Assembly: GCF_026151205.1 (NCBI RefSeq) | Contig: NC_087074.1 | Coordinates: 10,759,226-10,823,225 of the forward strand | Direction of reading: 5' to 3' | DNA length: 64,000 nt | From: Bolinopsis microptera | Taxonomy: Eukaryota > Ctenophora > Tentaculata > Lobata > Bolinopsidae | Shown here: piece after piece, positions 22,331 through 59,852 of the stretch | Layout: every line of letters begins with the position of its first letter | How positions within the stretch are numbered: position 1 is the first letter of the stretch | Notes under the pieces: model-generated | Told to the model about the DNA's origin: nothing | Seen by the model: the letters and a program-made list of their open reading frames with translations, nothing else | Database searches by the model: none | Translations under genes and position numbers: made by a program

Positions 22331-24675
22331 GACCGAGTTTTATTTACAAATAGATAACTTATTTCAATTCAGAATGACGGATTCTTTATAATTTACTTTT
22401 AAATTAATTTTATTTATATCCTATATTTGTTTAAGAACCTCGTTCTTGACCATGAAGGATGGTGAATGAGATGAAAAGAGCATTTTTACTCGATGCCAGT
22501 GTGTCAGGATCATAATAATATGTCGCTTACCAGTGTTTCTGCCGTTAGTTGCAAACAGTCACATTTATTTTGAATATGTAACTGTAAAACCCTGTAACAG
22601 GTTTAAAACTTTGAAACAATTCCATAATTGTTTAATGATACTGATCATGATAGGTAAATTATTCACACGTGAACATAATCATGTGACAATGTTTCAGATG
22701 TTTGAGAGCGATCTTAGCGAGATGAAGAATATTGCAAGCTCTTATAATGTTTATACAACGTTTCATATTCCATTTCGAACCTTCGAAGGCATCCTAATTT
22801 TTTGTGTGCAAATCATCAGCATAAATCAATTCGGAATCTAATTGTAACTTTTAAGAGTGAATCGAAAAGATCCAAGTTTATGGTAGGAAGGGAAAAGAAA
22901 TATCCGCGGTATGTTTCACGGTATACTGTATCTAAAAAATGTTTCCAGAGACAGGGATTGTTCGCATATTACATAATCCGAATCGTATTTGATATTTTAT
23001 CACTAGCAGACGAAATAATTTTTTTAAGAAGACAGATTTTACCTTTTGACATTGTCACTTTATTTGCAGTTTTAAAAAGCTTAAAAATGTTTAAATTTGG
23101 AAGAAGCAAGTCAGTTCAGCTCTAGCTGGTCATTGTAAGAGTTATGAACAGTTTATAAATAGAAACAGCGGCAAAGAGAAGAAATTTTGTATTCGTCTTC
23201 GAACTATATAGAGGTCGTGGTTAATATCGTGGTTTTATGATTGACACTGTTCCACGAGTAACATCGTACGATTTAGGTCAGCTCCAAATAATATTAATGG
23301 AGTATAATATAGGCAAAAAAAGAAAGAAAAAAGCACAATATTTACTTCCCTGCTCATGAGTCATATGCGACAAATTTTCTGTTTAACTATTCAAGTTGAA
23401 TTATCAAAAGAATTAAAAAGGGTAACACTAACCATGCCAGATCAGCGGCTCTACAAAAATAAAAATTTGATTATTGATTCTTTAACGCAAAATAATTAAT
23501 TTGAAATTGAAATCTATAATATGCAGTGGACACTTGTATATTTTTTATTATCATGAATAGAACACTCCACATTCTAAACCCAAACAAAAATGTTACTACC
23601 TTTGATGCAATTACGTTTTTCAAGCCCTCTTTGACTTTGTTCCATATCCAATACTTAATGCACTTGATTTATTAAGAGATTACCACTCACTTACAACTTG
23701 ATAACGAATAATATGAATAATTAGATCAAATAAAACAATTAATATGATATTATTGTTATCATCAATAATATACTTATTATTTTACACACTAGTATAAAAT
23801 AGTTAAGAAGTTAATTTAATCATTTATGTCAGGGAATTTTAACATATTTCGTATCCCCCGTTCAATTTCGAGTCTAAGATCGTCAAACTAGCACAGAATC
23901 AGGCAAGTTAAAAATTATTTCAAAGGTATGAAATTGGATTTGCTTTTTGTAAAAAGTAATTATGCTTAAAATGTGCGCCTATTTTGATTTTTTATCCCTA
24001 GCAGACGAAATAATTTTTTAAGGACACAGATTTTACCTTTCGACATTTTCACTTTATTTGCAGTAAATAAAGTTTTAAAATGTTTCAACTTGCAAGAAGC
24101 AAGTCACTCAGTCAGTTCAGCTCTAGCTGGTCATGGTCACAGCTATGAACAGTTTATAAATAAAAACAGAGGCAAAAAGACTATCGTATTATTATTAAAC
24201 CATCAGGTAATGGTATCTTTCAAATTACATCATGTTTCATTTGTTGTCATTCAATCAATGCTAAAAGGTGTTCGAATAGTTACCATGTAAGAATAAATCA
24301 AAGCATTTTCTAGAGACAAAATTTAAATCAGGCGATCACGACTAACTACAAGTAAAGGCAAAGCCACAAAGTGGATACCTCAGCCCTGAAAATTTGCGAC
24401 GGTTACTATTTTAAAACTCGAAACCTTCCACTTTTGGAATTTTTTGTAGTGCACTGATCTGGTCATCTCATTGTCCTGGAGTCCCGGAAAAGCTGTAAAC
24501 TTTGTTGGCAGCTGACCAACTTCGGATGGATTGTGGGTTTAACTCAAAGCTTCCTTGAATTAAACCCCTGAATGTTAGCAAAATTAACAAAATACTAAAA
24601 AACGTTAGCAAAATTTAAAGCTTTTTTTCTTATGCATGCATAACATACTCGTGACTGCAGTTACGAGTATCTTAT

Positions 24676-25242: not shown

Positions 25243-25372
25243 CTTAATTTAAAGCTATTTGAATTTCGTTGTTCCTGCACTAGTGCACTTTGACTTATTA
25301 TAGAGTTATAGTAATCATGCCAGCCAACTAACGATGAATGTAATCAAGGTTAATCAATAATCATCATCATAT

Positions 25373-25970: not shown

Positions 25971-28236
25971 GACCGAGTTTTATTTACAAATAGATAACTT
26001 ATTTCAATTCAGAATCACGGATTCTTTTTAATCGTAAATGAATTTTATTTATATCCTATATTTGTTTTGGAACCTCGTCCTTGACCATGAAGGATGGTGA
26101 ATGAGATGAAAAGGGCATTTTTTACTCGATGCCAGTGTGTCAGGTGTCTGGGTCAGAAGTTTGCGATCATAATAATATGTCGCTTACCAATGTTTCTGCC
26201 GTTAGTTGCAAACAGTCACATTTATTTTGAATATGTAACAGCTGTAAAACCCTGTAACAGGTTTAAAACTTTGAAACAATTCCATAATTGTTTAATGATA
26301 CTGATCATGATAGGTAAATTATTCACACGTGAACATAATCATGTGACAATGTTTCAGATGTTTGAGAGCGATCTTAGCGAGATGAAGAATATTGCGAGCT
26401 CTTATAATGTTTATACAACGTTTCATAATTCATTTCGAACCTTCGAAGGCAGCCTAATTTTTTTTGTGCAAATCATCTGCATAAATCAATTCGGAATCTA
26501 ATTGTTACTTTTAAGAGTGATCGAAAATATTCAAGTTTATGGTAGGAAGGGGAAAGAAATATCCGCGGTATGTTTCACGGTATACCGTATCTAAAAAATG
26601 TTTCCAGAGACAGGGATTGTTCGCATATTACATAATCGTATTTGATATTTTATCACTAGCAGACGAAATAATTTTTTTAAGAAGACAGATTTTACCTTTC
26701 GACATTGTCACTTTATTTGCAGTAAAAAAAGCTTAAAAATGTTTAAATTTGGAAGAAGCAAGTCAGTTCAGCTCTAGCTGGTCATTGTAAGAGTTATGAA
26801 CAGTTTATAAATAGAAACAGCGGCAAAGAGAAGAAATTTTGTATTCGTCTTCGAACTATATAGAGGTCGTGGTTAATATCGTGGTTTTATGATTGACACT
26901 GTTCCACGAGTAACATCGTACGATTTAGGTCAGCTCCAAATAATATTAATGGAGTATAATATAAGCAAAAAAAGAAAGAAAAAAGCACAATATTTACTTC
27001 CCTGCTCATGAGTCATATGCGACAAATTTTCTGTTTAACTATTCAAGTTGAATTATCAAAAGAATTAAAAAGGGTAACACTAACCATGCCAGATCAGCGG
27101 CTCTACAAAAATAAAAATTTGATTATTGATTCTTTAACGCAAAATAATTAATTTGAAATTGAAATCTATAATATGCAGTGGACACTTGTATATTTTTTAT
27201 TATCATAAATAGAACACTCCACATTCTAAACCCAAACAAAAATGTTACTACCTTTGATGCAATTACGTTTTTCAAGCCCTCTTTGACTTTGTTCCATATC
27301 CAATACTTAATGCACTTGATTTATTAAGAGATTACCACTCACTTACAACTTGATAACGAATAATATGAATAATTAGATCAAATAAAACAATATTAACATA
27401 TTTCGTATCCCCCGTTCAATTTAACGAGTCTAAGATCGTAAAACTAGCACAGAATCAGGCAAGTTAAAAAATTATTTCAAAGGTATGAAATTGGATTTGC
27501 TTTTTGTAAAAAGTAATTATGCTTAAAATGTGCGCCTATTTTGATTTTTTATCCCTAGCAGACGAAATAATTTTTTAAGGACACAGATTTTACCTTTCGA
27601 CATTTTCACTTTATTTGCAGTAAATAAAGTTTTAAAATGTTTCAACTTGCAAGAAGCAAGTCACTCAGTCAGTTCAGCTCTAGCTGGTCATGGTCACAGT
27701 TATGAACAGTTTATAAATAAAAACAGAGGCAAAAAGATTATCGTATTATTATTAAACCATCAGGTAATGGTATCTTTCAAATTACATCATGTTTCATTTG
27801 TTGTCATTCAATCAATGCTAAAAGGTGTTCGAATAGTTACCATGTAAGAATAAATTAAAGCATTTTCTAGAGACAAAATTTAAATCAGGCGATCACGACT
27901 AACTACAAGTAAAGGCAAAGCCACAAAGTGGATACCTCAGCCCTGAAAATTTGCGACGGTTACTATTTTAAAACTCGAAACCTTCCACTTTTGGAATTTT
28001 TTGTAGTGCACTGATCTGGTCATCTCATTGTCCTGGAGTCCCGGAAAAGCTGTAAACTTTGTTGGCAGCTGACCAACTTCGGATGGATTGTGGGTTTAAC
28101 TCAAAGCTTCCTTGAATTAAACCCCTGAATGTTAGCAAAATTAACAAAATACTAAAAAACGTTAGCAAAATTTAAAGCTTTTTTTCTTATGCATGCATAA
28201 CATACTCGTGACTGCAGTTACGAGTATCTTATTTAA

Positions 28237-39758: not shown

Positions 39759-39846
39759 AAACCCTAATCCCAACCCTAACCCTAACCATAACCCCGAAGC
39801 TATCCATAATCTTAACCACAACCCTAACCCTAACCCGAGCCCTAAA
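39759..39846. repeat. Interstitial telomere-like CCCTAA tract, copy 1
   Basis: A degenerate run of CCCTAA-type hexamers (TAACCCTAACC, CCATAACCCC, CTTAACCACAACCCTAA). It fits the metazoan telomere unit TTAGGG, on the minus strand, embedded upstream of gene B. Confidence 0.75.
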
Positions 39847-40224
39847 TAATCGAATACACGTTTTACTAGCCAAAAAGGGCCTTTTCACAAGAATTTTCTT
39901 AAAATTTGGGCGAGCGATTTAGTAGGAGCGACCAGTACCAACACGCAAGTTGCAACCCTTTAATGATAATATTAATAATAACTTACGTAATTCGTATCAG
40001 AATTACTTAAGAATTTCAGAAAATATAAATATGCCGATATGTGATATGGGTCAAACTTAGATTTCCTGAAAATTCTGTAAAACAAAGGGTGTGGCACGCC
40101 AAGGTCCCTTTTTTTATTTATTGTCGCCATAAAGTGAGAAGGAAGTAGGAATTGAGTTAGGAAGTAGGAATAACTCATATTGTGTTTGATTGATGATGTC
40201 AACCCTTCCAGATCGTTAAAACCC

Positions 40225-40322
40225 CTCCAGATATAGAAAACTGAGTTCTCTTGGTATTTAGTGTATGCTAGTCAAGCTCTAGTCACGTAGCACGAACGGC
40301 AGGGCGTACCGTAGGGTAGAAA
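40225..40322 (-). repeat. Inverted fragment of the element 2 LTR end plus primer site
   Basis: On the minus strand it reads through the last about 90 bp of the LTR and then CTATATCTGGAGG, the LTR end and the first bases of the primer site. It is placed head-to-head with the direct LTR fragment that follows. Confidence 0.8.
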
Positions 40323-40332
40323 GAAAACAAGT

Positions 40333-40452
40333 AAATTATCCTTTTTAATATACTCGTTTCATTTCTACTATACGGTACGCCCTGCCGTTTCGTGCTTCGT
40401 GACTAGAGCTTGACTAGCATACACTAAACACTAAGGAACGCGGTTTTCTATA
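40333..40452 (+). repeat. Truncated 5' LTR of element 2
   Basis: Only the last 120 bp of the LTR (from AATTATCCTTTTTAATATAC to TTTTCTATA), so the promoter part (U3) is missing and transcription of this copy is doubtful. Confidence 0.85.
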
Positions 40453-40949
40453 TCTGGAGGCCACTTTTAGTGTTGCTATTTTTGCTCGTGATCCTTCTAG
40501 TATCACCTATATTCAGTATAGTTTCGTTTAAGATCCTAACGTTTCTCATTTGATAAGCTAAGTTCGGTATACGTCGAAGTCCAGAAGAATTACGTGGAGA
40601 TTGTTCGAGATCTTTCAGTACTTCCTACTAGATTTGGTAAGTGTAGCTACCCATTTTGTGGTACCTGTATATTCCAGTTGAGTGCGATCGTTTTGACGAG
40701 CACCTAGTTTACAGCCGCTTGTAGACTTCAGTACGTTATTACCTAGATTGTTAGTGAGATTTGCGTAAGTTTTGCAACCTTACTTTCCGTACATCTACTC
40801 AGGAGTGATAGACGTAGAAGTTACAGTTCCAGTAAAGCACAGTAAAGTCTTGACTAGAAGATTTTCCAGCAACGTGAAGAGTACGCCTGTTCCAGTACTT
40901 ATCTACTCTATTTGTAAGTGTATTTTTACATTTAGATTCACTTTTTAGC
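40453..40949 (+). other. Element 2 leader with primer binding site
   Basis: TGGAGGCCAC at 40455-40464, 2 nt after the LTR end, fits a tRNA primer site (cognate tRNA not identified). The rest of the 500-nt leader to the gag ATG has no coding frame and is expected to hold packaging and translation signals. Confidence 0.6.
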
Positions 40950-42383: not shown

Positions 42384-42415
42384 AGGGCGGCCCTAGATTT
42401 AAGAGGAGGTCGCCC
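42371..42415 (+). promoter_or_regulatory. -1 programmed ribosomal frameshift signal between gag and pol
   Basis: TTTAAAC at 42371-42377 is a canonical X-XXY-YYZ heptamer in the gag frame (CCT TTA AAC). After a 7-nt spacer containing the gag stop, GGGCGGCC (42385-42392) pairs over all 8 positions (one G-U) with GGTCGCCC (42408-42415) around a 15-nt loop. A -1 slip here enters the pol frame, which is open across the junction. Confidence 0.9.
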
Positions 42416-47106: not shown

Positions 47107-47680
47107 AAGACGGGAAGAAGCCCTGACAGGGAGTACACTTACTTTGGAATCTAGTCTCAGTACAGTAATATCTTACGCACTTAGCTAGAACTTTCCATTT
47201 AGTACTTAGCAGTGATTTAGTACCTTACTTAGGTATAACACGTGTATCTTTCAGAACAGTACTGATAGGGATATTAGGATCTTTACTCGCAACACGACTC
47301 GCTCAGGGCTGCTTTAGTGGCGGAAACGTAGAAACTTTCGAATTTATTTTGAATTCTTTGTTTGCTTGTCAAGGACGAATTAGAGATTCGATACATCTCT
47401 ATCAATTGATGAAGACTCAACACCAAGGACTATACAACTTGGTGCGAAAAGGAAGTATTGGAAAGTTTTGAAAGATTTTTGGAAGTCAATTTTAGTTTTA
47501 ATTTTAGTATTTTGAGGATTTAAATTTAATGCACAGGGTTAGGGCCGTGTTTTATATTTTGAAACTTGACCTATTTTTAAGTTTTGGACTTTTGATGCGT
47601 GGAAGCATTGAAATTTAAATTTTGAAAAGGGCGATTATTTTATTGTTTTGAAATATTCGAAAAAAATTTTTGGGTACAGA
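47107..47680 (+). other. Element 2 3' untranslated region
   Basis: 574 bp between the integrase stop and the 3' LTR. No frame. A clear polypurine tract directly at the LTR is lacking (the last bases are TTTTTGGGTACAGA); GAAAAGGGCG occurs about 50 bp upstream. Confidence 0.6.
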
Positions 47681-48366
47681 TGTTGTAATATGGTATTTAG
47701 AGATATCTTTTAAAATATCTTAGTTTTAGTATAACGTTTAAGGGACGTAGAATTTAGTATGTATTTCCGGGTATATAATAACCAATGTTTTTATATGTTC
47801 GTATTTGGGAGTTACACATTTTGAGTGTAAGTCGGTTGGCTGGCAGAACTACTGTCAGACTAACTGTCTGAAACGAGCCGTCCGCTCACTTTGCACCTGA
47901 CTTACAGCCAGGCCTGTGGTTGGTCCTCGCGACCACAGCGTGACTGCTAGTGGAGTGCTCATTGGCGAGACGGCGTGTCACGTGGTACAAGCAAATGCGT
48001 TGTGCTGTCACGCAGTGTGGCGTGACGAAGTTTTGAGAGTATACCCGAAGAGCCGGAAGTGGAGAGCTCACTTCTTAGTTGCCCCTTAATCATTTTAAGG
48101 GATTCGATTGTCAATAGCCAGTTTAACTGAGTACTATTCTCTGTGACTAGACACGTAGTGTGATCTATATTCACGGCAATCGCTTGGAGCGAACACTTGG
48201 AAGTTTTCTATGTTGACGTTCACTTTGTATAACTTTCTCCTTTTAATTAATTATCCTTTTTAATATACTCGTTTCATTTCTACTATACGGTACGCCCTGC
48301 CGTTCGTGCTTCGTGACTAGAGCTTGACTAGCATACACTAAACACTAAGGAACGCGGTTTTCTATA
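47681..48366 (+). repeat. 3' LTR of element 2
   Basis: 686 bp, nearly identical to the LTR at 38127-38813 (about two substitutions and one T deletion seen). It is followed by CAGC and the gene B exon. It ends in CTATA rather than the usual CA; the end is fixed by the primer-site side of the 5' remnant and by the target duplication. Confidence 0.88.
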
Positions 48367-48370
48367 CAGC

Positions 48371-48764
48371 TAAATGACCATGACCTGCTAAAACTTCCAA
48401 CAAGAATCTCATCACAATACAAAAAAAGTTCACTTGAAGTCTTTTGCATTCTCCAAATTCTTTCATTGGAAGCTGGTACTGGGACATTCGATATTTGTTC
48501 TGTATTACACAAATTTTGAAATTGAAATGTTGAACTATAACTGTCAGTATTGAATTCCATGAGGCCGCCACCAAAATTTCTACCGTGGATATCAAACTGC
48601 CTAACTCCTGACACTTTCATCTCTAAGTCATATAAGTCAAAGTCGACATCAAAAGTACTGTGTCCGGAAACTGTTGTCCATGCCACTGCGAAGTGAAATC
48701 TAAAAACATTAACAAGTAAAACGATTACAATTCCTGTGCACTGCATTTCACGTCTTGTGTTTTC
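48371..48764 (-). pseudogene. Gene B first exon, 5' part, copy 2 (cut by the 3' LTR)
   Basis: Same sequence as 38818-39211 by translation (ATG at 48746). On the minus strand it reads straight into the 3' LTR of element 2 instead of the rest of its exon, so it cannot complete the FA-like domain in this arrangement. Confidence 0.8.
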
Positions 48765-49311
48765 CTGAAAAAGATTATAAAACACTTTTTTTAAATTTTT
48801 GTGGCAGAGATGTAAGAAATTACAAAAGATTCACCTTATTTTTACTTTTTTGATTGATGCTGCATATCCTAAAAATATCACATTGTTTTCAGTTTTGCTT
48901 TCATTTTTCATGCTGTTTTGAGACCAAGTAAGTTGTAGTTGTAAAGCGCATTATATTATTACCTGGTATGATTTTGAAGGCACTGTATTATTGAATATTG
49001 ATGAAATGCAGTTGTTTTCACGTAAAGTGAAGCAATTATATGTGCATATTTCACAATTTAAACTTTTTCGACAAACACTATACACATTCTGATTGAATAT
49101 TGATTATAATCAATTGAAAAATACAAAATGATAACCCTGTGTCAATGTCATGTGGGGTGATTCGGATTTAGCTTTCAAAAATACAATATGTTCATCGATT
49201 CAAGGTGGTTTCAACTGTCGGGTTTATTTGGCTTTTACTAAATCGCTCGCCCAAAAATTTCACGTGACTTTGGTTTTTTTGGTTTTGCAGCCGTACAAAA
49301 CGGTTTGACAT

Positions 49312-49399
49312 AAACCCTAATCCCAACCCTAACCCTAACCATAACCCCGAAGCTATCCATAATCTTAACCACAACCCTAACCCTAACCCGAGCCCTAAA
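49312..49399. repeat. Interstitial telomere-like CCCTAA tract, copy 2
   Basis: The same degenerate telomeric tract as at 39759-39846, carried by the segmental duplication. Confidence 0.75.
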
Positions 49400-49770
49400 T
49401 AATCGAATACACGTTTTACTAGCCAAAAAGGGCCTTTTCACAAGAATTTTCTTAAAATTTGGGCGAGCGATTTAGTAGGAGCGACCAGTACCAACACGCA
49501 AGTTGAAGTTGCAACCCTTTAATGATAATATTAATAATAACTTACGTAATTCGTATCAGAATTACTTAAGAATTTCAGAAAATATAAATATGCCGATATG
49601 TGATATGGGTCAAACTTAGATTTCCTGAAAATTCTGTAAAACAAAGGGTGTGGCACGCCAAGGTCCCTTTTTTTATTTATTGTCGCCATAAAGTGAGAAG
49701 GAAGTAGGAATTGAGTTAGGAAGTAGGAATAACTCATATTGTGTTTGATTGATGATGTCAACCCTTCCAG

Positions 49771-49820
49771 ATCGTTGCTTTGCTGTTTGCGAATTAACAA
49801 TAACAGCAACCAGCAACGAT
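49771..49820. other. 17-bp-stem hairpin at the duplication breakpoint
   Basis: ATCGTTGCT TTGCTGTT at 49771-49787 pairs with AACAGCAA CC AGCAACGAT at 49802-49820, with one 2-nt bulge and a 14-nt loop. Copy 1 of the duplication stops inside the 5' arm, after ATCGTT. Confidence 0.85.
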
Positions 49821-50759: not shown

Positions 50760-50765
50760 CATACC
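50760..50765. other. Target-site duplication CATACC, left
   Basis: CATACC precedes the AG terminus. The same six bases follow the CT terminus at 59847-59852. Related unoccupied sites contain a single copy. Confidence 0.9.
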
Positions 50766-51080
50766 AGTAGTATATATACATACACCTGGCCCCCAATCAC
50801 CTAGGTGTGAACTGCCCCCGGGGCCTCCCCGGGCCGAGCTGCCCCCGGGGAGCTGAGGGACTGCCCCGGGGAGCTGGGGAACTGCTCCGGGAACACCCTC
50901 CGTGAACCAGGGGCAATCGCAACAACAATCACCACAGCCCGGGAACTCACCCGGAACGGGCTCTCTGTGAGCCAGGTGTGAAATATCCTCGTAACGGGCT
51001 CCGGGGACCCTCGAGAGATCGTTCATTTGTTGTTGAGTTCGATTGTTTAGTTTCACACCTCTCGGACTGGAACAAGACAT
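50766..51080 (-). CDS. Left-arm Cys/Pro/Gly-rich frame reading outward through the terminus
   Basis: ATG at 51080 (MSCSSPRGVKLNNRTQQQMN). It continues through GCGDCCCDCPW (50911-50939) and repeated GAVPQLPG phrases encoded by the GC-rich terminal tandem sequence. No stop occurs before the element end, so the frame runs 14 codons into host DNA and stops at 50724. Function unknown. It may be spliced or spurious near the terminus, but the Cys motif recurs in another frame of the element. Confidence 0.4.
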
Positions 51081-51376
51081 CTCAGATGTAAGTATATTTT
51101 TATTTTGTAGCGAATATTCTGTTCACGGGGCACACAAAACTGTCCCGGGCCCTTGTTCCTAAGATCCGCAAGTCCGGTGTGATCTTTCTTAGAGCACGAG
51201 GACTTTTATTGCAATAAATCCCTCGGTGTGAACCCGACCCTCCCAGAGCAATAGGTCCCACAATTTGCAGCAAGTACTTGCTATATCAAAATCTACACAA
51301 TCATATTTCAACTTACCCTCCCGATCTCCGCGTGACCACTCCCGGAATTATTATGTTTATCATCATTTCATATGTG

Positions 51377-51730
51377 TTATCTTTGAAACAGCAATCTACG
51401 ACACGGCGAGATCTTGACCAATTTTTGTTTACACTTGATGTCTAGTAATGCTACATAGTATTTCACAAGTCCGTTTTTTATTTCCAACTTGAACTCAAGC
51501 TCCGGACACACAGAACTAGTAGCAACAATTGACGCTGCATTATTATATTTTTGAGGTGTGACAATTGTTTGAAGAGAGCTTTTCATAAATGTATCACAAG
51601 ACCATGATATGTTGAATATTGTCAAACCTGCCCCCCGTATTACGCCTGATTTACTTGAAATTCGTTTACCAATTTTGTAAATATGATTATTTGTTGTTAT
51701 TTCGAAGAGAAGTGACTGAAAAGGTGCCAA
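51377..51730 (-). CDS. Left-arm unknown frame, 117 codons, heading outward
   Basis: An open frame with no ATG at its start. A TTTTCAG acceptor-like site lies just inside its beginning, before SLLFEITTNN, so it could be a second exon. The composition is normal for protein (VCPELEFKLEIKNGLVKYYV; DIKCKQKLVKISPC). I recognise no family. It is conserved in both arms only because the arms are copies. Confidence 0.35.
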   Translation of the reverse strand: MAPFQSLLFEITTNNHIYKIGKRISSKSGVIRGAGLTIFNISWSCDTFMKSSLQTIVTPQKYNNAASIVATSSVCPELEFKLEIKNGLVKYYVALLDIKCKQKLVKISPCRRLLFQR

Positions 51731-52390
51731 TTTTTAATTCTGGGACTTGCAACAAAACGTTAGTTTGTCAGGTGAGTCAGTCATAATGTTAAACTTGAAG
51801 AGTAGCGCGGTTGAAACATGTATATAAAATTTTCAATTGTTGAGTATTCTACGTATTCCAACAACATCTTGTTTTTGTTCATTTTGCTAATTCCGGGAAG
51901 CATTAATTTTACGCTTCCATCATATTGTAAGATTTAAAATTGAGTAATTATAGGACTGTCAAATATTGCAACTAAATTTACAGGGGTCAATAACAGATAG
52001 TGATCCAATCACGTGACCGTTAATCCTTTCACGATACAGTATTACTCCTTACGGACATAAACCATGTAGTGGAACTCACAGCTAGGAGCTCTACGTTTGA
52101 GACTCTGGCTAGGGAGAACTATGATATCCACCTTCACGAGATGCATGCCACACCAGGTAATTACAGATTGAAGCAAATCCCAGTTACAGTTTTCAGTTCA
52201 TTCAACCGAATCCGTTTTCCCTTTTGAATTATATGATGATCATTTTGTAACAGTGCTGATTTTCATAAAACATCACGCAAAACATTCCAGGGTCTAGAAC
52301 TGGTGACGATGCAACAAGACTGAACAATATCAAAACAACATTCAAGCAAAATTGAGCGATGTTTGAGTAAATTGCTGAGCAGTCCCCAAG
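51731..52390. other. Left arm, intergenic between divergent frames
   Basis: 660 bp between the outward unknown frame and the inward zinc-finger gene. It probably holds promoters for both. A CACGTG-like TCACGTGA box lies near 52010. No other feature seen. Confidence 0.4.
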
Positions 52391-52399
52391 TATATAAAG
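52391..52399 (+). promoter_or_regulatory. TATA box of the left-arm zinc-finger gene
   Basis: TATATAAAG, with the TATAAAG core 39 nt before the ATG at 52432. The same spacing is found for the central membrane-protein gene. Confidence 0.65.
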
Positions 52400-52431
52400 A
52401 GAACAAGGTTGGAAATTCATTTCAATCAGAG

Positions 52432-53073
52432 ATGTCGGTGTTTTGTCCTCTCTGCGATAAACAATTCGCAAACAAGCAAAGTCTGTCCTCACACAAAAGT
52501 CGGTATCATCGGAAGAAGGGAGAATCACACACAAGTTCTATCAACCACCCACCGTCAAAAGCTTATGTGACTGATGAAAAAAGGGATAATCCTAAATATT
52601 CAGACGCTGATACAACAATATCTGAAGAAGATTATCAAGACAGTTCTAACTCTGAAGTAGCAAGTGTTGATGATGAGTCAAAAACAGAATCTGATCATAT
52701 GACAAGTAGAGATAAGCTAGACTCTGACTCCCTGTGGCAACAAAAATGTAAGCGGAAAGAAGTACCAATCAAACAAATAAACAAAAAGGTGAAGATGTCG
52801 AAATTTATCAAAACTTTAGACGTTCTGTCACAAAGAAAGTTATGTAAGGAGGAAGACAAACGTTTTGACTTTTTATCCTCTTACATAATGAAAAATGAAG
52901 TGTTTGAGACATTGAAGCAGCGACTCAATAACTCTAGGCAAGACATCGCCACCGTTTTAAGTTTGGAAGAACGAGCTCTATTGGATGCAGTAATTACAAC
53001 TACAAGTCTATCTGATGTCAACAAGCTAATGAACGAGAATAAAACAATCGTCAGTAAGATTCTTGAACTTTAA
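52432..53073 (+). CDS. Left-arm C2H2 zinc-finger protein, 213 aa
   Basis: Starts MSVFCPLCDKQF. One C2H2 finger at residues 4-26 (C-x2-C-x12-H-x4-H) is followed by basic RKKG. The middle (residues 45-115) is acidic and Ser/Asp-rich (SEEDYQDSSNSE), then comes a Lys-rich patch (KCKRKEVPIKQINKKVK) that could be a nuclear signal. The C-terminal 80 residues are probably helical (FIKTLDVLSQRKL; LSLEERALLDAV). I infer a nuclear DNA-binding or regulatory protein of the element. It does not match any core Polinton protein that I know. The only difference from the right-arm copy that I see is Gln versus Lys in NNSR(Q/K)DIA. Confidence 0.75.
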   Translation: MSVFCPLCDKQFANKQSLSSHKSRYHRKKGESHTSSINHPPSKAYVTDEKRDNPKYSDADTTISEEDYQDSSNSEVASVDDESKTESDHMTSRDKLDSDSLWQQKCKRKEVPIKQINKKVKMSKFIKTLDVLSQRKLCKEEDKRFDFLSSYIMKNEVFETLKQRLNNSRQDIATVLSLEERALLDAVITTTSLSDVNKLMNENKTIVSKILEL

Positions 53074-53845
53074 CCGTTGTTAACTATTGTTAAGTTTAAT
53101 AACGAACATATAGTTGTTGAATATTTTGGATCAAATTGACACTGTGTTGAATATTACAGTACACCTGTTACTGCTTGTTGTTGAAATTATAATTATATTT
53201 CTGGATTTAAAAGTATGATTGATATTGTACACAAGGTTGTACACAATTTTAAATAAACTGGTGGTGTTTTTGCGTTGATCTTTAATCCAGCACAAGAGCT
53301 GTAGTACCATCCGCAGGCCATCCACCTCTTTTGGGGTCAATCTCTTTTCATAGTTAGGTTTCGACTCTAGTAAACAAACCTATCCACTAATGATGATACA
53401 GATAAAATTACTAACCTGTTTAACAGCCCTAGGCCTACCCTACTGCCAGCTCAATACTGTATCTTTTTGGTGTAGGGTAATTGTATAGAACCATAGACAG
53501 TAACTTTTTGGTGTTGATCCAGCATGAGAGCTTAAGTGAACAACGAGGAGGTTCATGTAACCCTCTTCTTGTGATGACCACCGATGTAGTGTTGATGATC
53601 TCCTTTGTATGGTGATGATTCAAGAGGATCAGGTGTTCAATGTAATGAAATCTCTGTATACTACCCAGTACCCAACTGTTGGCGATCACTGCTTCTTGTG
53701 TGATCCTCATTCACACGACTGTTACAACTCCAAGTGACATGCAACAACACATTTGTAGGATGCTCTCAAGACACATGCTACTGCACTATTACATTGCTGA
53801 TAGGCGATTGTAAGGACGATTGTTCACGTAAATACGACGTCTGGG
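53074..53845. other. Left arm between the zinc-finger gene and the small Cys-rich frame
   Basis: Holds two antisense open frames (53131-53340, 53435-53710) that lack domains and promoters and that I do not accept as genes. Otherwise nothing recognised. Confidence 0.4.
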
Positions 53846-53926
53846 ATGACAGAAGAAGAGTGGACCCCTGTAGATCCATCTGGGGACCGTCATTGCTGTG
53901 GTGATTGTTGTTGTGATTATTTGTGA
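53846..53926 (+). CDS. Left-arm 26-codon Cys-rich micro-frame
   Basis: ATG at 53846 encodes MTEEEWTPVDPSGDRH, then CCGDCCCDYL and a stop. The CCGDCCC core matches, at DNA level over about 24 bp, the GCGDCCCDC motif of the outward terminal frame on the opposite strand. Short, so weak as a gene on its own. The shared motif and the identical mirror copy are the support. Confidence 0.4.
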   Translation: MTEEEWTPVDPSGDRHCCGDCCCDYL

Positions 53927-54565
53927 AAATGTGATCCTCCGATATGTAGTCCCTGCTCGCTCCTGCCTCTTGATACTGACTGTGATACCCCCCTGATCAG
54001 ATTGGCAAGCTTTTTATTCCTTTGGTATCATTAATTGCACGGTTTTTTCATTGCTACCTTTGGAAATGCTTATGGCCTCCAGAAATTTAAACATACTCAT
54101 GATTTTTATACAACAGTGGAATCATGAGTTTGGGTATTTTACTCCAAAAGGATAGATTATCAAGGATTTTCATAGATTTTCAGGATTATCAAGGATATCA
54201 AGATTATCAAGGATTTTCATAGATTTTATAGATATATCACAATCGAAAGAGTCATCAGAGATGACAGACTTTTCTGAGAAAGCAGTGTTTTGAAAATTTA
54301 GTTCGGACTTCCCTGACTTCCCAGGCTTCCACTGGCGGGCCCTGCGCGGAGAATGAGGGGGCGCAGAGGGGAAATCACGGGATGTCTGGGAAGTCTACTG
54401 TCATGCCTATCATTATTATCATTTGTCTATCATTATTATCATTCACCTATAATTATTATCATTTGTCTATCATTATTTGAAATTTTCAACCCATTTACAA
54501 TAACCAGGGATTCAATTAAACTTGCTCGGGATATGTTTACTTAATATGACATCGTTCCATAAGGG
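53927..54565. other. Inner left arm: short tandem repeats, no gene
   Basis: Contains ATCAAGGATTTTCATAGATT-type direct repeats (about 54168-54230) and four 18-bp CTATCATTATTATCATTTG-type repeats (about 54408-54475) just outside the unique centre. A GC-rich CGGGCCCTGCGCGGAGAATG block lies between them. The arm ends at 54486 and the rest is unique. Confidence 0.6.
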
Positions 54566-54573
54566 TATAAAAG
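54566..54573 (+). promoter_or_regulatory. TATA box of the central membrane-protein gene
   Basis: TATAAAAG 40 nt before the ATG at 54606, the same layout as for the zinc-finger gene. Confidence 0.65.
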
Positions 54574-54605
54574 CAATGAAGTCTTACCCCCTCCCCCATT
54601 CAAAC

Positions 54606-55163
54606 ATGAACTTTAATTTTTTATTTAGCGTAGTTTCTACACTGGCCTTCGTCATTGAATTTCCAGTTAATTCAAACAAAACACAAGACTACTTCTTTTT
54701 TGAGGGGGTCAACAAAACAGCACACCTGTACCGTGAAGACAAAACATTGTTTTTACATTTGAATCGCGATCATGGGAAGATGTTTTCACTCTTTAACGCG
54801 ACTATAGAGAGGGATAGCTTTCTATTCTCCTGGAAAGGATTCAAAATTGATGAAGTTGATATGTTGTTACAGAGATATAATGGAGAAATTCAACAAACTG
54901 AATTTGAACACTTCACATTTATTTCTCCAATAATCACTGCTATAGACATTGAACCTCCTGCCACTCCTGTTTACAATTTGGAGTCAGATGTAAATTATTT
55001 CTATTTTTTTATTTTAACGTTTACAGCAGGAGTATTGCTTGAATCTAAAACTAAGGGATTTAGCATATTTAAACAGCTTATTCAGTCATCCAATAATAAT
55101 GTGTATGTTAGTACAGAACTTGATTGTAAGCAGGTTCTCGAGATAAAAGAGGATAATCCTTAA
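54606..55163 (+). CDS. Central gene 1: predicted type I membrane glycoprotein, 185 aa
   Basis: The start MNFNFLFSVV is chosen because it begins a signal peptide (FLFSVVSTLAFVI) and lies 40 nt after a TATA box; earlier in-frame ATGs at 54546 and 54576 would precede or sit inside the promoter. The ectodomain of about 105 residues has N-glycosylation sequons NKT (twice) and NAT and no paired cysteines. Hydrophobic FYFFILTFTAGVLL near residues 128-142 is a likely membrane span, followed by a tail of about 40 residues. I recognise no family. A surface protein on a mobile element hints at a viral origin or a host-interaction role, but that is inference. It lies entirely in the single-copy centre. 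Confidence 0.65.
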   Translation: MNFNFLFSVVSTLAFVIEFPVNSNKTQDYFFFEGVNKTAHLYREDKTLFLHLNRDHGKMFSLFNATIERDSFLFSWKGFKIDEVDMLLQRYNGEIQQTEFEHFTFISPIITAIDIEPPATPVYNLESDVNYFYFFILTFTAGVLLESKTKGFSIFKQLIQSSNNNVYVSTELDCKQVLEIKEDNP

Positions 55164-55298
55164 ACTGAAATATTAACATTTTTCATGCGATCACCTAATT
55201 TTAAATAATTTTATTGATTTGAAAATTTAGTTTTGGATACACTACATCATGAAAAGTATTTGTCGGATATCACAACCATAATTAACGACAACAAATAT

Positions 55299-56009
55299 AT
55301 GCGGACACTGGACAGGGTCTTAAAGTGTTTACCAGTAACTTACCTAAAGAATAAGTATAACTCTATAACTATAAGCTCGATACAACAATGTTGGAACTCA
55401 TTTCTTGTTTTACATCGGCAACTACGTTTCAAAATGGCTTTCTTCAACTGTTACGGGTTTATATCAGAAGTTCGACCAGTAGAAAGAGGGTATACGAGGT
55501 TAACAGTTACTACAAATATACCGTTTAAAACAAAACATTTAAAGTTCAACGTTTGGGATTCATTACTTCTAAAGAAAACAACGATGGAACCTTTCAAGAT
55601 AGGCGAGGAGGTTGAAGTACAGTATTCCTTCAAGAATAACTTCCCTCAACTCATCAACATGATACCTGCTGAAATAGACAATTGTCCAGTGTGCTACTCT
55701 TCATTGGAAGCTATGAATGCACAGAGAATTGAGTGTTTGGGGTGTAGTGCTATATCAGAAGCTGAACATTCGAAGAGAGTTAATGCACAAATGAAACTTG
55801 TATCGTATACTTTAAAGAAGTACGAGAGCTCAAGGGGTTATAGACTTGAATTATATTTTGCTGATGGACATAAAACTTTTACACCAGTTATTTTTGAAAG
55901 CAACTTAGTGTTCAAAATCATCCCTGAATTAAAAGTTGGTGATAGTTATTTTGTTATTGGTTGGATAGCCAGTAATGGTCGTTTTCTAAATGTAGTTGAT
56001 ATTTATTAG
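55299..56009 (+). CDS. Central gene 2: OB-fold plus zinc-ribbon protein, possible ssDNA-binding (RPA-like)
   Basis: The frame is open from 55218, but the first ATG is 55299 (MRTLDRVLKC, 236 aa). A stronger ATG context is CAAAATGG at 55434 (MAFFNCYGFI). A TTTAG acceptor-like site at 55226-55230 leaves room for an upstream exon. From MAFFN on, the pattern is beta-rich: GFISEVRPVERGYTRLTV, LKFNVWDSLL, FKIGEEVEVQYSF, as in an OB fold. Then CPVC...CLGC gives a four-Cys zinc ribbon, followed by a second beta-rich part ending in VGDSYFVIGWI. This order recalls RPA large-subunit DNA-binding domains and other viral or transposon ssDNA-binding proteins. Such a role would fit replication of a long-hairpin DNA, but no homologue was checked. 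Confidence 0.6.
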   Translation: MRTLDRVLKCLPVTYLKNKYNSITISSIQQCWNSFLVLHRQLRFKMAFFNCYGFISEVRPVERGYTRLTVTTNIPFKTKHLKFNVWDSLLLKKTTMEPFKIGEEVEVQYSFKNNFPQLINMIPAEIDNCPVCYSSLEAMNAQRIECLGCSAISEAEHSKRVNAQMKLVSYTLKKYESSRGYRLELYFADGHKTFTPVIFESNLVFKIIPELKVGDSYFVIGWIASNGRFLNVVDIY

Positions 56010-56685
56010 TTTCCTTCCCTAGAGGGATAACAGAGTTTAAAGTAATTTTCACATATTACAATTTATAGTAACAGTTCGTTTTAATTGTTTATTCACTAAA
56101 TATTAAATAAGTGGTAATAATGATAAAAAATTTCAAATAATGATAGACAAATGATAATAATTATAGGTGAATGATAATAATGATAGACAAATGATAATAA
56201 TGATAGGCATGACAGTAGACTTCCCAGACATCCCGTGATTTCCCCTCTGCGCCCCCTCATTCTCCGCGCAGGGCCCGCCAGTGGAAGCCTGGGAAGTCAG
56301 GGAAGTCCGAACTAAATTTTCAAAACACTGCTTTCTCAGAAAAGTCTGTCATCTCTGATGACTCTTTCGATTGTGATATATCTATAAAATCTATGAAAAT
56401 CCTTGATAATCTTGATATCCTTGATAATCCTGAAAATCTATGAAAATCCTTGATAATCTATCCTTTTGGAGTAAAATACCCAAACTCATGATTCCACTGT
56501 TGTATAAAAATCATGAGTATGTTTAAATTTCTGGAGGCCATAAGCATTTCCAAAGGTAGCAATGAAAAACCGTGCAATTAATGATACCAAAGGAATAAAA
56601 AGCTTGCCAATCTGATCAGGGGGGTATCACAGTCAGTATCAAGAGGCAGGAGCGAGCAGGGACTACATATCGGAGGATCACATTT

Positions 56686-56766
56686 TCACAAATAATCACA
56701 ACAACAATCACCACAGCAATGACGGTCCCCAGATGGATCTACAGGGGTCCACTCTTCTTCTGTCAT
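56686..56766 (-). CDS. Right-arm copy of the 26-codon Cys-rich micro-frame
   Basis: Mirror of 53846-53926 with the same CCGDCCCDYL end. Confidence 0.4.
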   Translation of the reverse strand: MTEEEWTPVDPSGDRHCCGDCCCDYL

Positions 56767-57538
56767 CCCAGACGTCGTATTTACGTGAACAATCGTCCTT
56801 ACAATCGCCTATCAGCAATTTAACAGTGCAGTAGCATGTGTCTTGAGAGCATCCTACAAATGTGTTGTTGCATGTCACTTGGAGTTGTAACAGTCGTGTG
56901 AATGAGGATCACACAAGAAGCAGTGATCGCCAACAGTTGGGTACTGGGTAGTATACAGAGATTTCATTACATTGAACACCTGATCCTCTTGAATCATCAC
57001 CATACAAAGGAGATCATCAACACTACATCGGTGGTCATCACAAGAAGAGGGTTACATGAACCTCCTCGTTGTTCACTTAAGCTCTCATGCTGGATCAACA
57101 CCAAAAAGTTACTGTCTATGGTTCTATACAATTACCCTACACCAAAAAGATACAGTATTGAGCTGGCAGTAGGGTAGGCCTAGGGCTGTTAAACAGGTTA
57201 GTAATTTTATCTGTATCATCATTAGTGGATAGGTTTGTTTACTAGAGTCGAAACCTAACTATGAAAAGAGATTGACCCCAAAAGAGGTGGATGGCCTGCG
57301 GATGGTACTACAGCTCTTGTGCTGGATTAAAGATCAACGCAAAAACACCACCAGTTTATTTAAAATTGTGTACAACCTTGTGTACAATATCAATCATACT
57401 TTTAAATCCAGAAATATAATTATAATTTCAACAACAAGCAGTAACAGGTGTACTGTAATATTCAACACAGTGTCAATTTGATCCAAAATATTCAACAACT
57501 ATATGTTCGTTATTAAACTTAACAATAGTTAACAACGG

Positions 57539-58180
57539 TTAAAGTTCAAGAATCTTACTGACGATTGTTTTATTCTCGTTCATTAGCTTGTTGACATCAG
57601 ATAGACTTGTAGTTGTAATTACTGCATCCAATAGAGCTCGTTCTTCCAAACTTAAAACGGTGGCGATGTCTTTCCTAGAGTTATTGAGTCGCTGCTTCAA
57701 TGTCTCAAACACTTCATTTTTCATTATGTAAGAGGATAAAAAGTCAAAACGTTTGTCTTCCTCCTTACATAACTTTCTTTGTGACAGAACGTCTAAAGTT
57801 TTGATAAATTTCGACATCTTCACCTTTTTGTTTATTTGTTTGATTGGTACTTCTTTCCGCTTACATTTTTGTTGCCACAGGGAGTCAGAGTCTAGCTTAT
57901 CTCTACTTGTCATATGATCAGATTCTGTTTTTGACTCATCATCAACACTTGCTACTTCAGAGTTAGAACTGTCTTGATAATCTTCTTCAGATATTGTTGT
58001 ATCAGCGTCTGAATATTTAGGATTATCCCTTTTTTCATCAGTCACATAAGCTTTTGACGGTGGGTGGTTGATAGAACTTGTGTGTGATTCTCCCTTCTTC
58101 CGATGATACCGACTTTTGTGTGAGGACAGACTTTGCTTGTTTGCGAATTGTTTATCGCAGAGAGGACAAAACACCGACAT
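57539..58180 (-). CDS. Right-arm copy of the C2H2 zinc-finger gene
   Basis: Mirror of 52432-53073, ATG at 58180. Intact and differing by one visible residue (Lys for Gln). A TATATAAAG box lies at the mirrored position. Two intact copies per element imply doubled dosage. Confidence 0.75.
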   Translation of the reverse strand: MSVFCPLCDKQFANKQSLSSHKSRYHRKKGESHTSSINHPPSKAYVTDEKRDNPKYSDADTTISEEDYQDSSNSEVASVDDESKTESDHMTSRDKLDSDSLWQQKCKRKEVPIKQINKKVKMSKFIKTLDVLSQRKLCKEEDKRFDFLSSYIMKNEVFETLKQRLNNSRKDIATVLSLEERALLDAVITTTSLSDVNKLMNENKTIVSKILEL

Positions 58181-58881
58181 CTCTGATTGAAATGAATTTC
58201 CAACCTTGTTCTCTTTATATACTTGGGGACTGCTCAGCAATTTACTCAAACATCGCTCAATTTTGCTTGAATGTTGTTTTGATATTGTTCAGTCTTGTTG
58301 CATCGTCACCAGTTCTAGACCCTGGAATGTTTTGCGTGATGTTTTATGAAAATCAGCACTGTTACAAAATGATCATCATATAATTCAAAAGGGAAAACGG
58401 ATTCGGTTGAATGAACTGAAAACTGTAACTGGGATTTGCTTCAATCTGTAATTACCTGGTGTGGCATGCATCTCGTGAAGGTGGATATCATAGTTCTCCC
58501 TAGCCAGAGTCTCAAACGTAGAGCTCCTAGCTGTGAGTTCCACTACATGGTTTATGTCCGTAAGGAGTAATACTGTATCGCGAAAGGATTAACGGTCACG
58601 TGATTGGATCACTATCTGTTATTGACCCCTGTAAATTTAGTTGCAATATTTGACAGTCCTATAATTACTCAATTTTAAATCTTACAATATGATGGAAGCG
58701 TAAAATTAATGCTTCCCGGAATTAGCAAAATGAACAAAAACAAGATGTTGTTGGAATACGTAGAATACTCAACAATTGAAAATTTTATATACATGTTTCA
58801 ACCGCGCTACTCTTCAAGTTTAACATTATGACTGACTCACCTGACAAACTAACGTTTTGTTGCAAGTCCCAGAATTAAAAA

Positions 58882-59235
58882 TTGGCACCTTTTCAGTCAC
58901 TTCTCTTCGAAATAACAACAAATAATCATATTTACAAAATTGGTAAACGAATTTCAAGTAAATCAGGCGTAATACGGGGGGCAGGTTTGACAATATTCAA
59001 CATATCATGGTCTTGTGATACATTTATGAAAAGCTCTCTTCAAACAATTGTCACACCTCAAAAATATAATAATGCAGCGTCAATTGTTGCTACTAGTTCT
59101 GTGTGTCCGGAGCTTGAGTTCAAGTTGGAAATAAAAAACGGACTTGTGAAATACTATGTAGCATTACTAGACATCAAGTGTAAACAAAAATTGGTCAAGA
59201 TCTCGCCGTGTCGTAGATTGCTGTTTCAAAGATAA
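58882..59235 (+). CDS. Right-arm copy of the unknown 117-codon frame
   Basis: Mirror of 51377-51730, reading outward. No ATG; possible acceptor TTTTCAG at 58890-58896. Confidence 0.35.
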   Translation: MAPFQSLLFEITTNNHIYKIGKRISSKSGVIRGAGLTIFNISWSCDTFMKSSLQTIVTPQKYNNAASIVATSSVCPELEFKLEIKNGLVKYYVALLDIKCKQKLVKISPCRRLLFQR

Positions 59236-59531
59236 CACATATGAAATGATGATAAACATAATAATTCCGGGAGTGGTCACGCGGAGATCGGGAGGGTAAG
59301 TTGAAATATGATTGTGTAGATTTTGATATAGCAAGTACTTGCTGCAAATTGTGGGACCTATTGCTCTGGGAGGGTCGGGTTCACACCGAGGGATTTATTG
59401 CAATAAAAGTCCTCGTGCTCTAAGAAAGATCACACCGGACTTGCGGATCTTAGGAACAAGGGCCCGGAACAGTTTTGTGTGCCCCGTGAACAGAATATTC
59501 GCTACAAAATAAAAATATACTTACATCTGAG

Positions 59532-59846
59532 ATGTCTTGTTCCAGTCCGAGAGGTGTGAAACTAAACAATCGAACTCAACAACAAATGAACGATCTCTCG
59601 AGGGTCCCCGGAGCCCGTTACGAGGATATTTCACACCTGGCTCACAGAGAGCCCGTTCCGGGTGAGTTCCCGGGCTGTGGTGATTGTTGTTGCGATTGCC
59701 CCTGGTTCACGGAGGGTGTTCCCGGAGCAGTTCCCCAGCTCCCCGGGGCAGTCCCTCAGCTCCCCGGGGGCAGCTCGGCCCGGGGAGGCCCCGGGGGCAG
59801 TTCACACCTAGGTGATTGGGGGCCAGGTGTATGTATATATACTACT
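59532..59846 (+). CDS. Right-arm copy of the outward Cys/Pro/Gly-rich frame
   Basis: Mirror of 50766-51080. Here the frame leaves the element and stops at 59882 after a different host-encoded tail from the left copy. Confidence 0.4.
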
Positions 59847-59852
59847 CATACC
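59847..59852. other. Target-site duplication CATACC, right
   Basis: Follows the ACTACT terminus. Together with 50760-50765 it reconstructs a single CATACC in the interrupted flank. Confidence 0.9.

What the first reader, a model, noticed from the sequence alone, without database searches (positions are those of the whole stretch)
50766..59846. A palindromic, Polinton-like satellite element with 3.7-kb inverted arms
Seen: AG...CT termini, exact 6-bp CATACC duplication, two 3.72-kb arms differing at about six sites, and a 1.64-kb single-copy centre. Known: Polintons/Mavericks make 6-bp duplications and have AG...CT inverted ends, but their inverted repeats are usually a few hundred bp to about 1 kb and they encode polymerase, integrase, protease, ATPase and capsid. 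None of these is visible here. Inference: a non-autonomous element that uses a Polinton-type integrase in trans, with a new gene set. The arms make up over 80 percent of its length.
Basis: partly seen in the sequence, partly recalled or inferred. Interest (0 to 1): 0.93.

Follow-up and report, generated by a model that had tools for sequence, protein, structure and literature searches.

The report
Mirror-image satellites of Polinton mobile elements
This is a real jumping element that reads almost the same on both strands; it appears to live off virus-like Polinton elements in the same animal genome, and it looks like a replication by-product that became a parasite of its parent.

Summary
Confirmed: 9,081 bp, two 3.72-kb arms 99.84% identical, ends (AGT)2//(ACT)2, CATACC duplication. 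It is not an assembly fold-back: four more copies with different flanks have their own 6-bp duplications, and unoccupied paralogous sites exist for the four window-family copies tested.

Polinton-type helpers share the genome; one on C11 shares 520 bp of terminus (92%). The gene set is not wholly new: the centre holds a membrane-protein-like gene, a predicted single-strand-binding protein and two truncated remnants, all related to Polinton genes. The arm zinc-finger gene occurs in a second family.

Main new result: palindromes recur. Among the listed arm/zinc-finger matches, close pairs are 19 inverted and 0 direct: five loci of this family and 13 others, and a long single-copy form exists. 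One element of a third family carries a polymerase-type ORF in each 6-kb arm. Arms agree within copies and differ between copies; one copy has the same 2.1-kb insert in both arms.

I read these as copy-back (snap-back) derivatives of a protein-primed element, with arms re-copied in the mobile phase. Parentage is strong. The copy-back step is inferred, and this family's direct parent was not found.

The parts
50760..50765 (.). left target-site duplication CATACC
   Evidence: single copy in the empty-site paralogs
50766..54486 (+). left arm, 3,721 bp
   Evidence: 99.84% identical to the right arm
50766..51290 (+). outer ~525 bp of the left arm: the terminal repeat proper, shared (85-92%) with elements at C11, C5 and C1
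52432..53073 (+). zinc-finger ORF, 213 aa, left arm (TATATAAA about 40 bp upstream, read by eye)
   Evidence: relatives in a second palindromic family and its long form
54479..54559 (+). remnant of the 3' end of a Polinton zinc-finger/coiled-coil ORF; starts 8 bases before the arm/centre junction
   Evidence: 63% over 27 aa to residues 423-449 of L027:2032-3381
54487..56126 (+). single-copy centre, 1,640 bp
54576..55163 (+). membrane-protein-like ORF, 195 aa (upstream ATG at 54546; conserved MNFNF start at 54606; hydrophobic stretches by eye)
   Evidence: 72% to the ORF of L027 that lies near integrase and ATPase ORFs; dN/dS 0.18-0.29 against the C2 copy
55221..55352 (+). remnant of the 3' end of a second Polinton ORF
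   Evidence: 39% over 46 aa to L028:2683-3081
55434..56009 (+). predicted single-stranded-DNA-binding protein, 191 aa, two OB folds and four conserved cysteines
   Evidence: 61% to L028:2060-2635; best model pLDDT 78.7, with SSB, LEF-3 and weaker RPA matches
56127..59846 (-). right arm, 3,720 bp
57539..58180 (-). zinc-finger ORF, 213 aa, right arm
59322..59846 (-). outer ~525 bp of the right arm: terminal repeat proper
59847..59852 (.). right target-site duplication CATACC
26265..26641 (-). unoccupied paralog of the insertion site
   Evidence: 91.4% to the joined flanks across the junction
22605..22969 (-). second unoccupied paralog of the insertion site
   Evidence: 92.1% to the joined flanks across the junction

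Best explanation
It is a non-autonomous palindromic derivative (satellite) of Polinton/Maverick elements. Shown: it inserts with Polinton-type ends and 6-bp duplications, no Polinton enzyme searched for matched it, it carries relatives of Polinton accessory genes and truncated Polinton ORF remnants, and Polintons that could act as helpers share its genome, one of them its terminus. Also shown: the two arms of a copy share a common state that differs between copies, so one arm is repeatedly copied to the other. Inferred: it arose when the protein-primed polymerase of a linear Polinton turned back on the displaced or nascent strand (copy-back, snap-back), giving end - arm - loop - arm - end with two good origins and a short loop. 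It is then replicated by a helper polymerase and inserted by a helper integrase. Because the displaced strand of a palindrome folds on itself, one arm is rewritten from the other in each replication cycle. In effect it is a defective-interfering genome that became a lasting transposon family, with its own predicted single-strand-binding protein. The family-level claim (non-autonomous Polinton derivative) I hold at about 0.93. The confidence below is for the whole statement, copy-back included.
For: Ends, duplications and empty sites. Terminal relatives with Polinton genes: C11 (L016/L017: polymerase, integrase, ATPase, protease-type and OB-type ORFs; 520 bp of terminus at 92%, one end) and C5 (L012: both ends, duplication CTCCCC, polymerase ORFs 95-97% like C11). 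Centre built from Polinton-type genes and remnants, one remnant lying across the arm/centre junction. Arms: within-copy differences 5, 2, 9 and 2 substitutions against 24-113 between copies outside the near-identical C3-C9 pair (4-7 there); 106 of 121 variable columns have both arms agreeing in all four copies. A 2.15-kb insert sits at the same site in both arms of the C1 copy. Recurrence: 19 inverted and 0 direct same-part pairs within 11 kb among the 49 listed matches; L025 and L026 read as palindromes with 6-bp duplications; a long form with one zinc finger, 134-bp terminal repeats, duplication GCCATC and polymerase-type ORFs; a palindrome with a polymerase-type ORF in each arm and duplication CTTGTT. 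Fold point of the spacerless palindrome L026 in a strong GGGAGGG/CCCTCCC hairpin. Polintons are described as encoding a protein-primed PolB (passage of PMC6431247).
Against: No non-palindromic element with the inner arm (about 525-3,721) of the window family was seen among the 40 scored candidates of 267, so its direct parent is missing. The long form of the second family has no integrase match in its span, and its polymerase identity rests on weak matches. The arm zinc finger shows no constraint inside the window family (dN/dS 1.15 on 11 changes). C3 and C9 alone would not show arm homogenisation. No replication intermediate has been seen; a junction of two truncated molecules gives the same anatomy. 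Pfam did not recognise the polymerase ORFs.
Confidence: 0.6

Rival explanations
1. Polinton satellite as above, but the palindrome was made by end-joining: two linear molecules of the same element, broken at 3.72 kb and 5.36 kb from the end, were joined tail to tail (or sister molecules fused after a break).
For: It gives the same anatomy, and the 1.64-kb centre would be the difference between the two break points. The arm/centre junction lies in a remnant of a former gene.
Against: It does not by itself explain why the arms keep a common state over the history of the family. L026 has no spacer and folds back at a strong hairpin, and L025 folds back inside repeated sequence; template switching predicts this more readily than joining of random ends. 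Only these two fold points were read besides the window family's.
Confidence: 0.25
2. The arms are homogenised by ordinary gene conversion in the chromosome, not in the mobile phase; copy-back is not needed after the first inverted duplication.
For: Gene conversion between close inverted repeats is well known (recalled).
Against: Between the near-identical copies C3 and C9, 7 columns differ in one arm only and 2 are fixed in both arms; between C3 and C2 it is 7 against 108. Young differences are thus mostly in one arm and old ones mostly in both. The one-arm and the two-arm insert of the C1 copy show the same split. The sample is four copies, so slow conversion is not excluded.
Confidence: 0.12
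3. It is a Polinton lineage of its own in which very long terminal repeats are simply the normal state, with no copy-back step.
For: Terminal repeats of Mavericks vary widely: 46-1,447 bp in intact vertebrate elements (passage of PMC8097293). No short-repeat parent of the window family was found.
Against: The terminus shared with the C11, C5 and C1 relatives ends near 520-525 bp. The long form of the second family has 134-bp repeats while the two palindromes read have arms of 2.5-3 kb. The window element, L025 and L026 match none of the enzyme queries.
Confidence: 0.1
4. Assembly fold-back artefact.
For: Long palindromes are a common artefact of long-read libraries (recalled); no reads were available here.
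Against: Five copies with different flanks and different 6-bp duplications; unoccupied sites for four of them. A fold-back would mirror the flanks too.
Confidence: 0.01

Closest known systems
Polinton/Maverick self-synthesising elements (vertebrate Mavericks, PMC8097293, passages seen)
   Same: 6-bp target duplications and the (AGT)2//(ACT)2 end motif; accessory genes of this element have relatives in Polinton pieces of the same genome
   Different: No match to polymerase, integrase, ATPase, protease or capsid-candidate queries; repeats of 3.72 kb against 46-1,447 bp (mean 402) reported for intact vertebrate elements; almost wholly palindromic
Non-autonomous Polintons (known from repeat libraries; recalled, none seen in print here)
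   Same: Termini and duplications of a Polinton, helper enzymes needed
   Different: Carries conserved genes in a palindrome, and the same architecture recurs in other families; C5 (L012) is an example of an ordinary shortened form with short repeats
Copy-back or snap-back defective genomes and symmetric recombinants of adenoviruses and parvoviruses (recalled; searches returned no paper)
   Same: One genome end duplicated in inverse order, short loop, replication by a helper
   Different: Here the products are inserted in a genome, two of their genes show constraint, and they transpose; the mechanism has not been observed
Virophages and Polinton-like viruses with a helper (Mavirus and others; listing and passages)
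   Same: Small element depending on a larger one
   Different: Those encode capsids; no capsid gene was recognised here

Membership tests
Polinton/Maverick (as a non-autonomous member) | 6-bp target-site duplication | tested here: met
   Five copies with five different 6-mers; single 6-mer in unoccupied sites of four
Polinton/Maverick (as a non-autonomous member) | Inverted repeats ending AG...CT, motif (AGT)2//(ACT)2 | tested here: met
   Ends AGTAGT/ACTACT; motif as given for Mavericks in a passage of PMC8097293
Polinton/Maverick (as a non-autonomous member) | Terminus shared with a polymerase- and integrase-bearing element of the genome | tested here: met
   C11 (L016/L017), 520 bp at 92% at one end, its other end not located; C5 (L012), both ends, polymerase ORFs but no integrase seen
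Polinton/Maverick (autonomous) | Encodes PolB and retroviral-type integrase | tested here: not met
   tblastn of polymerase ORFs of three elements and integrase ORFs of two, E up to 0.01: none
Polinton/Maverick (autonomous) | Encodes packaging ATPase, adenovirus-type protease, capsid proteins | tested here: not met
   No match to ATPase, protease or the 418-aa capsid candidate of this genome's Polinton pieces; that the 418-aa ORF is a capsid was not established
Copy-back defective genome | Palindrome of one genome end with a short loop, derived from a known parent | tested here: inconclusive
   Consistent for the second family (L025 against L029, block identities about 80-88%); the direct parent of the window family was not found
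Copy-back defective genome | Produced and amplified during helper replication | not testable with these tools
   Needs extrachromosomal DNA

The most novel reading that the evidence does not exclude
Polinton-type elements of this animal keep turning themselves into palindromes by snap-back during protein-primed replication. The palindromes are stable mobile families: some carry accessory genes only, and one carries the polymerase in both arms, with a domain weakly resembling the branch-resolving endonuclease VII. Palindrome formation, arm rewriting and re-insertion would then be a normal second life cycle, and the genome would hold a long record of defective-interfering genomes of a DNA element.
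Probability: 0.45. Interest if true: 0.87.

Novelty: new variant of a known kind. Interest (0 to 1): 0.72.

Why it matters
How Polintons replicate has been predicted from their genes but, as far as I recall, not observed. Palindromes that recur at many loci, inverted rather than direct for the zinc-finger query, with arms that stay matched, are the kind of trace that strand-displacement replication with fold-back would leave. They turn an assumption into something that can be tested by sequencing unintegrated DNA. They also suggest a route by which a virus-like element produces its own parasites.

Tried and rejected
Assembly fold-back was rejected on five copies with separate flanks and on empty sites. 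'New gene set' was rejected. Joined flanks of L025 and L026 showed no unbroken empty site in the sequences held; they were not searched genome-wide, and C1's flanks were not tested. An encapsidated relative: a scan of IMG/VR with the OB-fold alignment gave 33 pattern matches and no relative. Protein database: 12, 4 and 9 hits for the OB, membrane-like and zinc-finger proteins, none with a name or Pfam domain. The membrane-like protein could not be modelled (pLDDT 31.7). Sequence searches of the PDB gave only 2 weak hits for the polymerase ORF (E 0.48 and 1.4) and 3 for the OB alignment (E 0.29-0.98). Pfam did not recognise the polymerase ORFs; phage records held no match. Organism: a COX1 search of the assembly found none; pentaxin, laminin-G and VWD matches above cut-off and an Ig match below it in window ORFs point to an animal, no closer. 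Literature on palindromic Polintons (listings only, part of the papers found): searches (15 of 44 listed; 20 of 26; 2 of 2; 40 of 1,615; 15 of 18; 8 of 24): no listed title or abstract start describes them. (adenovirus defective genomes) found no paper, one (passages seen), two on Polinton with endonuclease VII (listing only). Passages, not whole texts, were seen of PMC6431247, PMC4642659, PMC8097293, PMC12368964, PMC11575299 and PMC12721341. The original Polinton paper is not held. C11's left end was looked for at a guessed spot and remains unlocated. A first count of inverted zinc-finger pairs (17) used 43 of the 49 matches and a 6-kb limit; a first count of polymerase pairs (4) used 21 of 59; one search repeats both with all matches and counts direct pairs too.
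Full report
OBSERVATION. The window's own comparison shows two inverted arms, 50766-54486 and 56127-59846, 99.84% identical with 5 mismatches and 1 gap in 3,721 columns. CATACC stands outside both ends, and the ends are AGTAGT...ACTACT. The centre is 1,640 bp.

IT IS A REAL INSERTION. The genome is 264.65 Mb in 232 contigs, and the terminal 301 bp gives 33 matches. Nearly complete copies lie at C9 (L009:226-9296, 99.7%), C8 (L010:207-9213, 98.4-98.7%) and C2 (L011:208-9667; terminal blocks 85%, a main block of 8.8 kb at 96%). Copies with insertions or losses lie at C1 (L014/L015) and C7 (L020). Duplications at the window and at C9, C8, C2 and C1 are CATACC, CATCTC, AACGAC, CTCAAT and ACGTGA. 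Joined flanks of the window copy align across the junction to two unoccupied paralogs in the same window. Joined flanks of C8, C2 and C9 (151 bases each) match 40 scored places each: C8 at 98-99% and C2 at 87-99%, all over the full 151 bases; C9 at 99-100%, 39 of 40 over the full length. All four insertions tested lie in repeated DNA. C1's flanks were not tested. Flanks of two second-family elements gave no unbroken match in the sequences held.

WHAT IT ENCODES. Each arm has a 213-aa ORF with an N-terminal C2H2 finger (matches below Pfam's cut-offs). The centre has a 195-aa ORF with hydrophobic stretches near both ends (by eye) and a 191-aa ORF. The best of five models of the latter (pLDDT 78.7, pTM 0.46; the others 36-70.5) matches Thermus SSB (3.5e-5), baculovirus LEF-3 (9.1e-5) and more weakly RPA (7e-3). 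Other OB-fold proteins, such as HIN domains and an editosome protein, also match, and whole-chain TM-scores are low. Four cysteines are invariant in the window protein, L028's and 11 of the 12 database relatives; the twelfth, P0012, was left out. ORFs of all three genes are open in the window, C9, C8 and C2 copies, though in one C2 arm the zinc-finger ORF is 208 aa with 204 aligned. In C1 they are broken, and in C7 only part of the zinc finger was found. dN/dS against the C2 copy is 0.18-0.29 for the membrane-like gene and 0.13-0.19 for the OB gene, but 1.15 for the zinc finger on 11 changes. Between the window family and the second family the zinc finger has 0.34-0.39.

WHAT IT LACKS. tblastn of 21 ORFs of this genome's Polinton-type elements against the element matched only the membrane-like gene (72%), the OB gene (61%), the zinc finger (68-69%), a zinc-finger start (43% over 28 aa) and two remnants. 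One remnant is the last 27 residues of the 449-aa zinc-finger/coiled-coil ORF of L027, lying across the arm/centre junction. The other is 46 residues of an ORF of L028. No polymerase, integrase, ATPase, protease or capsid-candidate query matched; the polymerase-type ORF of L031 did not match either. So the centre looks like a deleted piece of a Polinton.

HELPERS IN THE GENOME. L027 has an integrase with chromodomain (Chromo 1.5e-8, above cut-off; rve 2.2e-4, below) beside an ATPase-type ORF (matches below cut-off). L028 has an adenovirus-type protease (Peptidase_C5, 1.1e-5, above cut-off). The integrase query gave 40 matches, and 16 of the 18 best (60-100% identity) have no stop inside. C11 (L016/L017) has polymerase ORFs (one PHROGs DNA-polymerase match, 2e-6 over about 95 residues; 59 matches in the genome with 52 of 187 candidates scored). 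It also has an rve integrase match (8.6e-6, below cut-off), relatives of the L027 ATPase (44%), the L028 protease (27-31%) and the L028 capsid candidate (31%), and an OB-type ORF (21%). It shares the right terminal 520 bp of the satellite at 92%; its left end was not located. C5 (L012, 7.1 kb) has both ends, duplication CTCCCC and polymerase ORFs 95-97% like C11. It is an ordinary shortened form with short repeats.

PALINDROMES RECUR. The inner-arm query gave 49 matches (40 of 267 candidates scored, so counts are lower bounds). Among them 19 same-part pairs within 11 kb are inverted and none is direct: 5 loci of the window family, one with two pairs, and 13 others, which I group as a second family. 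Of these 13, 7 are bounded by inverted pairs of that family's termini, 3 have one such terminus within about 6 kb and 3 have none among the listed matches. I read two. L025 (C2) has arms with no difference in 2,546 bp and duplication CGTAGG. L026 (C21) is a 6,119-bp palindrome without spacer, with 13 substitutions and 32 gap columns in 3,075, duplication AATTTG, and a fold point that forms a strong hairpin (z -14.8). Neither matched any enzyme query.

THE LONG FORM. C13 (L029/L030, 14.4 kb) has duplication GCCATC, 134-bp terminal repeats at 94%, one zinc finger and long ORFs of polymerase type. The polymerase assignment is by a chain of weak matches: 25% (1e-7) to the L031 ORF, which is 32% (8e-136) like C11's. 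A 238-aa piece of it has an endonuclease match (PHROGs 4.6e-6). Relatives of that piece lie 6-12 kb from integrase relatives at five loci on C1, C2, C9 and C10. It recurs at 93-99% identity at C12, C4 and C7, inside elements with the same termini and one listed zinc finger; stops are present in the C4 and C7 copies. No integrase match falls in these four spans. L025's arm follows the zinc-finger end of C13 in blocks of about 80-88%.

A THIRD FAMILY. The polymerase query of C11 gave 59 matches, with 6 inverted same-part pairs at 6 loci and 8 direct ones, all on C6 between 15.34 and 15.83 Mb. I read one inverted pair, C9 (L031/L032). Its arms reach at least 6,056 columns at 99.75%, its ends are AGTAGT/ACTACT, its duplication is CTTGTT, and a 1,261-aa polymerase-type ORF (stop to stop) is open in both arms with 1 residue different. 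The ORF carries a weak endonuclease VII match (Pfam 5.1e-4, below cut-off; PHROGs 9.9e-4). Recalled polymerase motifs A and B were found in it; the recalled DTDS pattern was found only in C11's ORF. The middle of this element was not fetched.

ARMS ARE COPIED FROM EACH OTHER. In four copies (eight arms) the two arms of a copy (C3, C9, C8, C2) differ by 5, 2, 9 and 2 substitutions and 1, 1, 1 and 2 indels. Arms of different copies differ by 24-113 substitutions, except C3-C9 at 4-7. In 106 of 121 variable columns both arms agree in all four copies. Of the 18 within-copy substitutions, 14 have one state private to a single arm, 2 lie in an insertion private to C8 and 2 are states shared with other copies. 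Fixed against one-arm differences are 2/7 for C3-C9, 19/12 for C3-C8, 108/7 for C3-C2, 20/9 for C9-C8, 109/4 for C9-C2 and 95/8 for C8-C2. The C1 copy has a 2.15-kb insert (reverse-transcriptase and GIY-YIG-like ORFs by eye, no tool test) at the same place in both arms, with 6 substitutions and 31 gap columns in 2,163, and a 4.1-kb LINE-like insert (by eye) in the left arm only. So an old insertion reached both arms and another did not.

MECHANISM. Parentage and dependence follow from sequence. That the palindrome arose by copy-back, that helper polymerase and integrase act in trans, and that rewriting happens in the mobile phase are inferences. The main rival for the first step is end-joining of truncated molecules. 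For the last step it is slow gene conversion in the chromosome.

NOVELTY. In a published survey, intact vertebrate Mavericks have repeats of 46-1,447 bp, mean 402 (passages of PMC8097293). Six searches of the held library showed no listed title or abstract start describing palindromic Polintons (only part of the hits was listed, and subscription papers are mostly not held). Non-autonomous Polintons as such are known (recalled). I rate it a new variant of a known kind.

Noticed in passing
C9:6594451-6608817 (L031:1952 to L032:6318): Palindromic element with a 1,261-aa polymerase-type ORF open in each arm and a weak endonuclease VII-like match inside the ORF; duplication CTTGTT.
   Followed up: partly
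C13:3767549-3781938 (L029, L030): Long element of the second family with 134-bp terminal repeats, one zinc finger and polymerase-type ORFs but no integrase match in its span.
   Followed up: partly
L014:6308-8462 and L015:4062-6205: The same 2.15-kb retroelement-like insert in both arms of the C1 copy, at the same site in the zinc-finger gene.
   Followed up: yes
window 38123-40217 and 47677-49776: 2.1-kb direct repeats, 99.5% identical, flanking ORFs with aspartyl protease (below cut-off), reverse transcriptase, RNase H and integrase domains (42359-47103); each repeat contains a 161-aa ORF with a relative near 14085-14666. No TG...CA ends, so an LTR element and a duplication with an insertion both remain possible.
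   Followed up: partly
window 16692-20987: 1,432-aa open Gag-Pol ORF (gag, reverse transcriptase, RNase H, integrase) on the minus strand.
   Followed up: partly
window 2264-12617 and 21601-30076: Clusters of direct repeats of about 0.2-3.3 kb at 83-99% identity. Window ORFs elsewhere have pentaxin/laminin-G, VWD and Ig-type matches, suggesting animal multigene families.
   Followed up: no
window 40224-40460: 237-bp imperfect palindrome (86%) that begins 7 bases after the left 2.1-kb repeat ends.
   Followed up: no
insertion sites of the window, C9, C8 and C2 copies: All four tested insertions lie in repeated DNA with unoccupied paralogs, which may reflect a target preference.
   Followed up: partly
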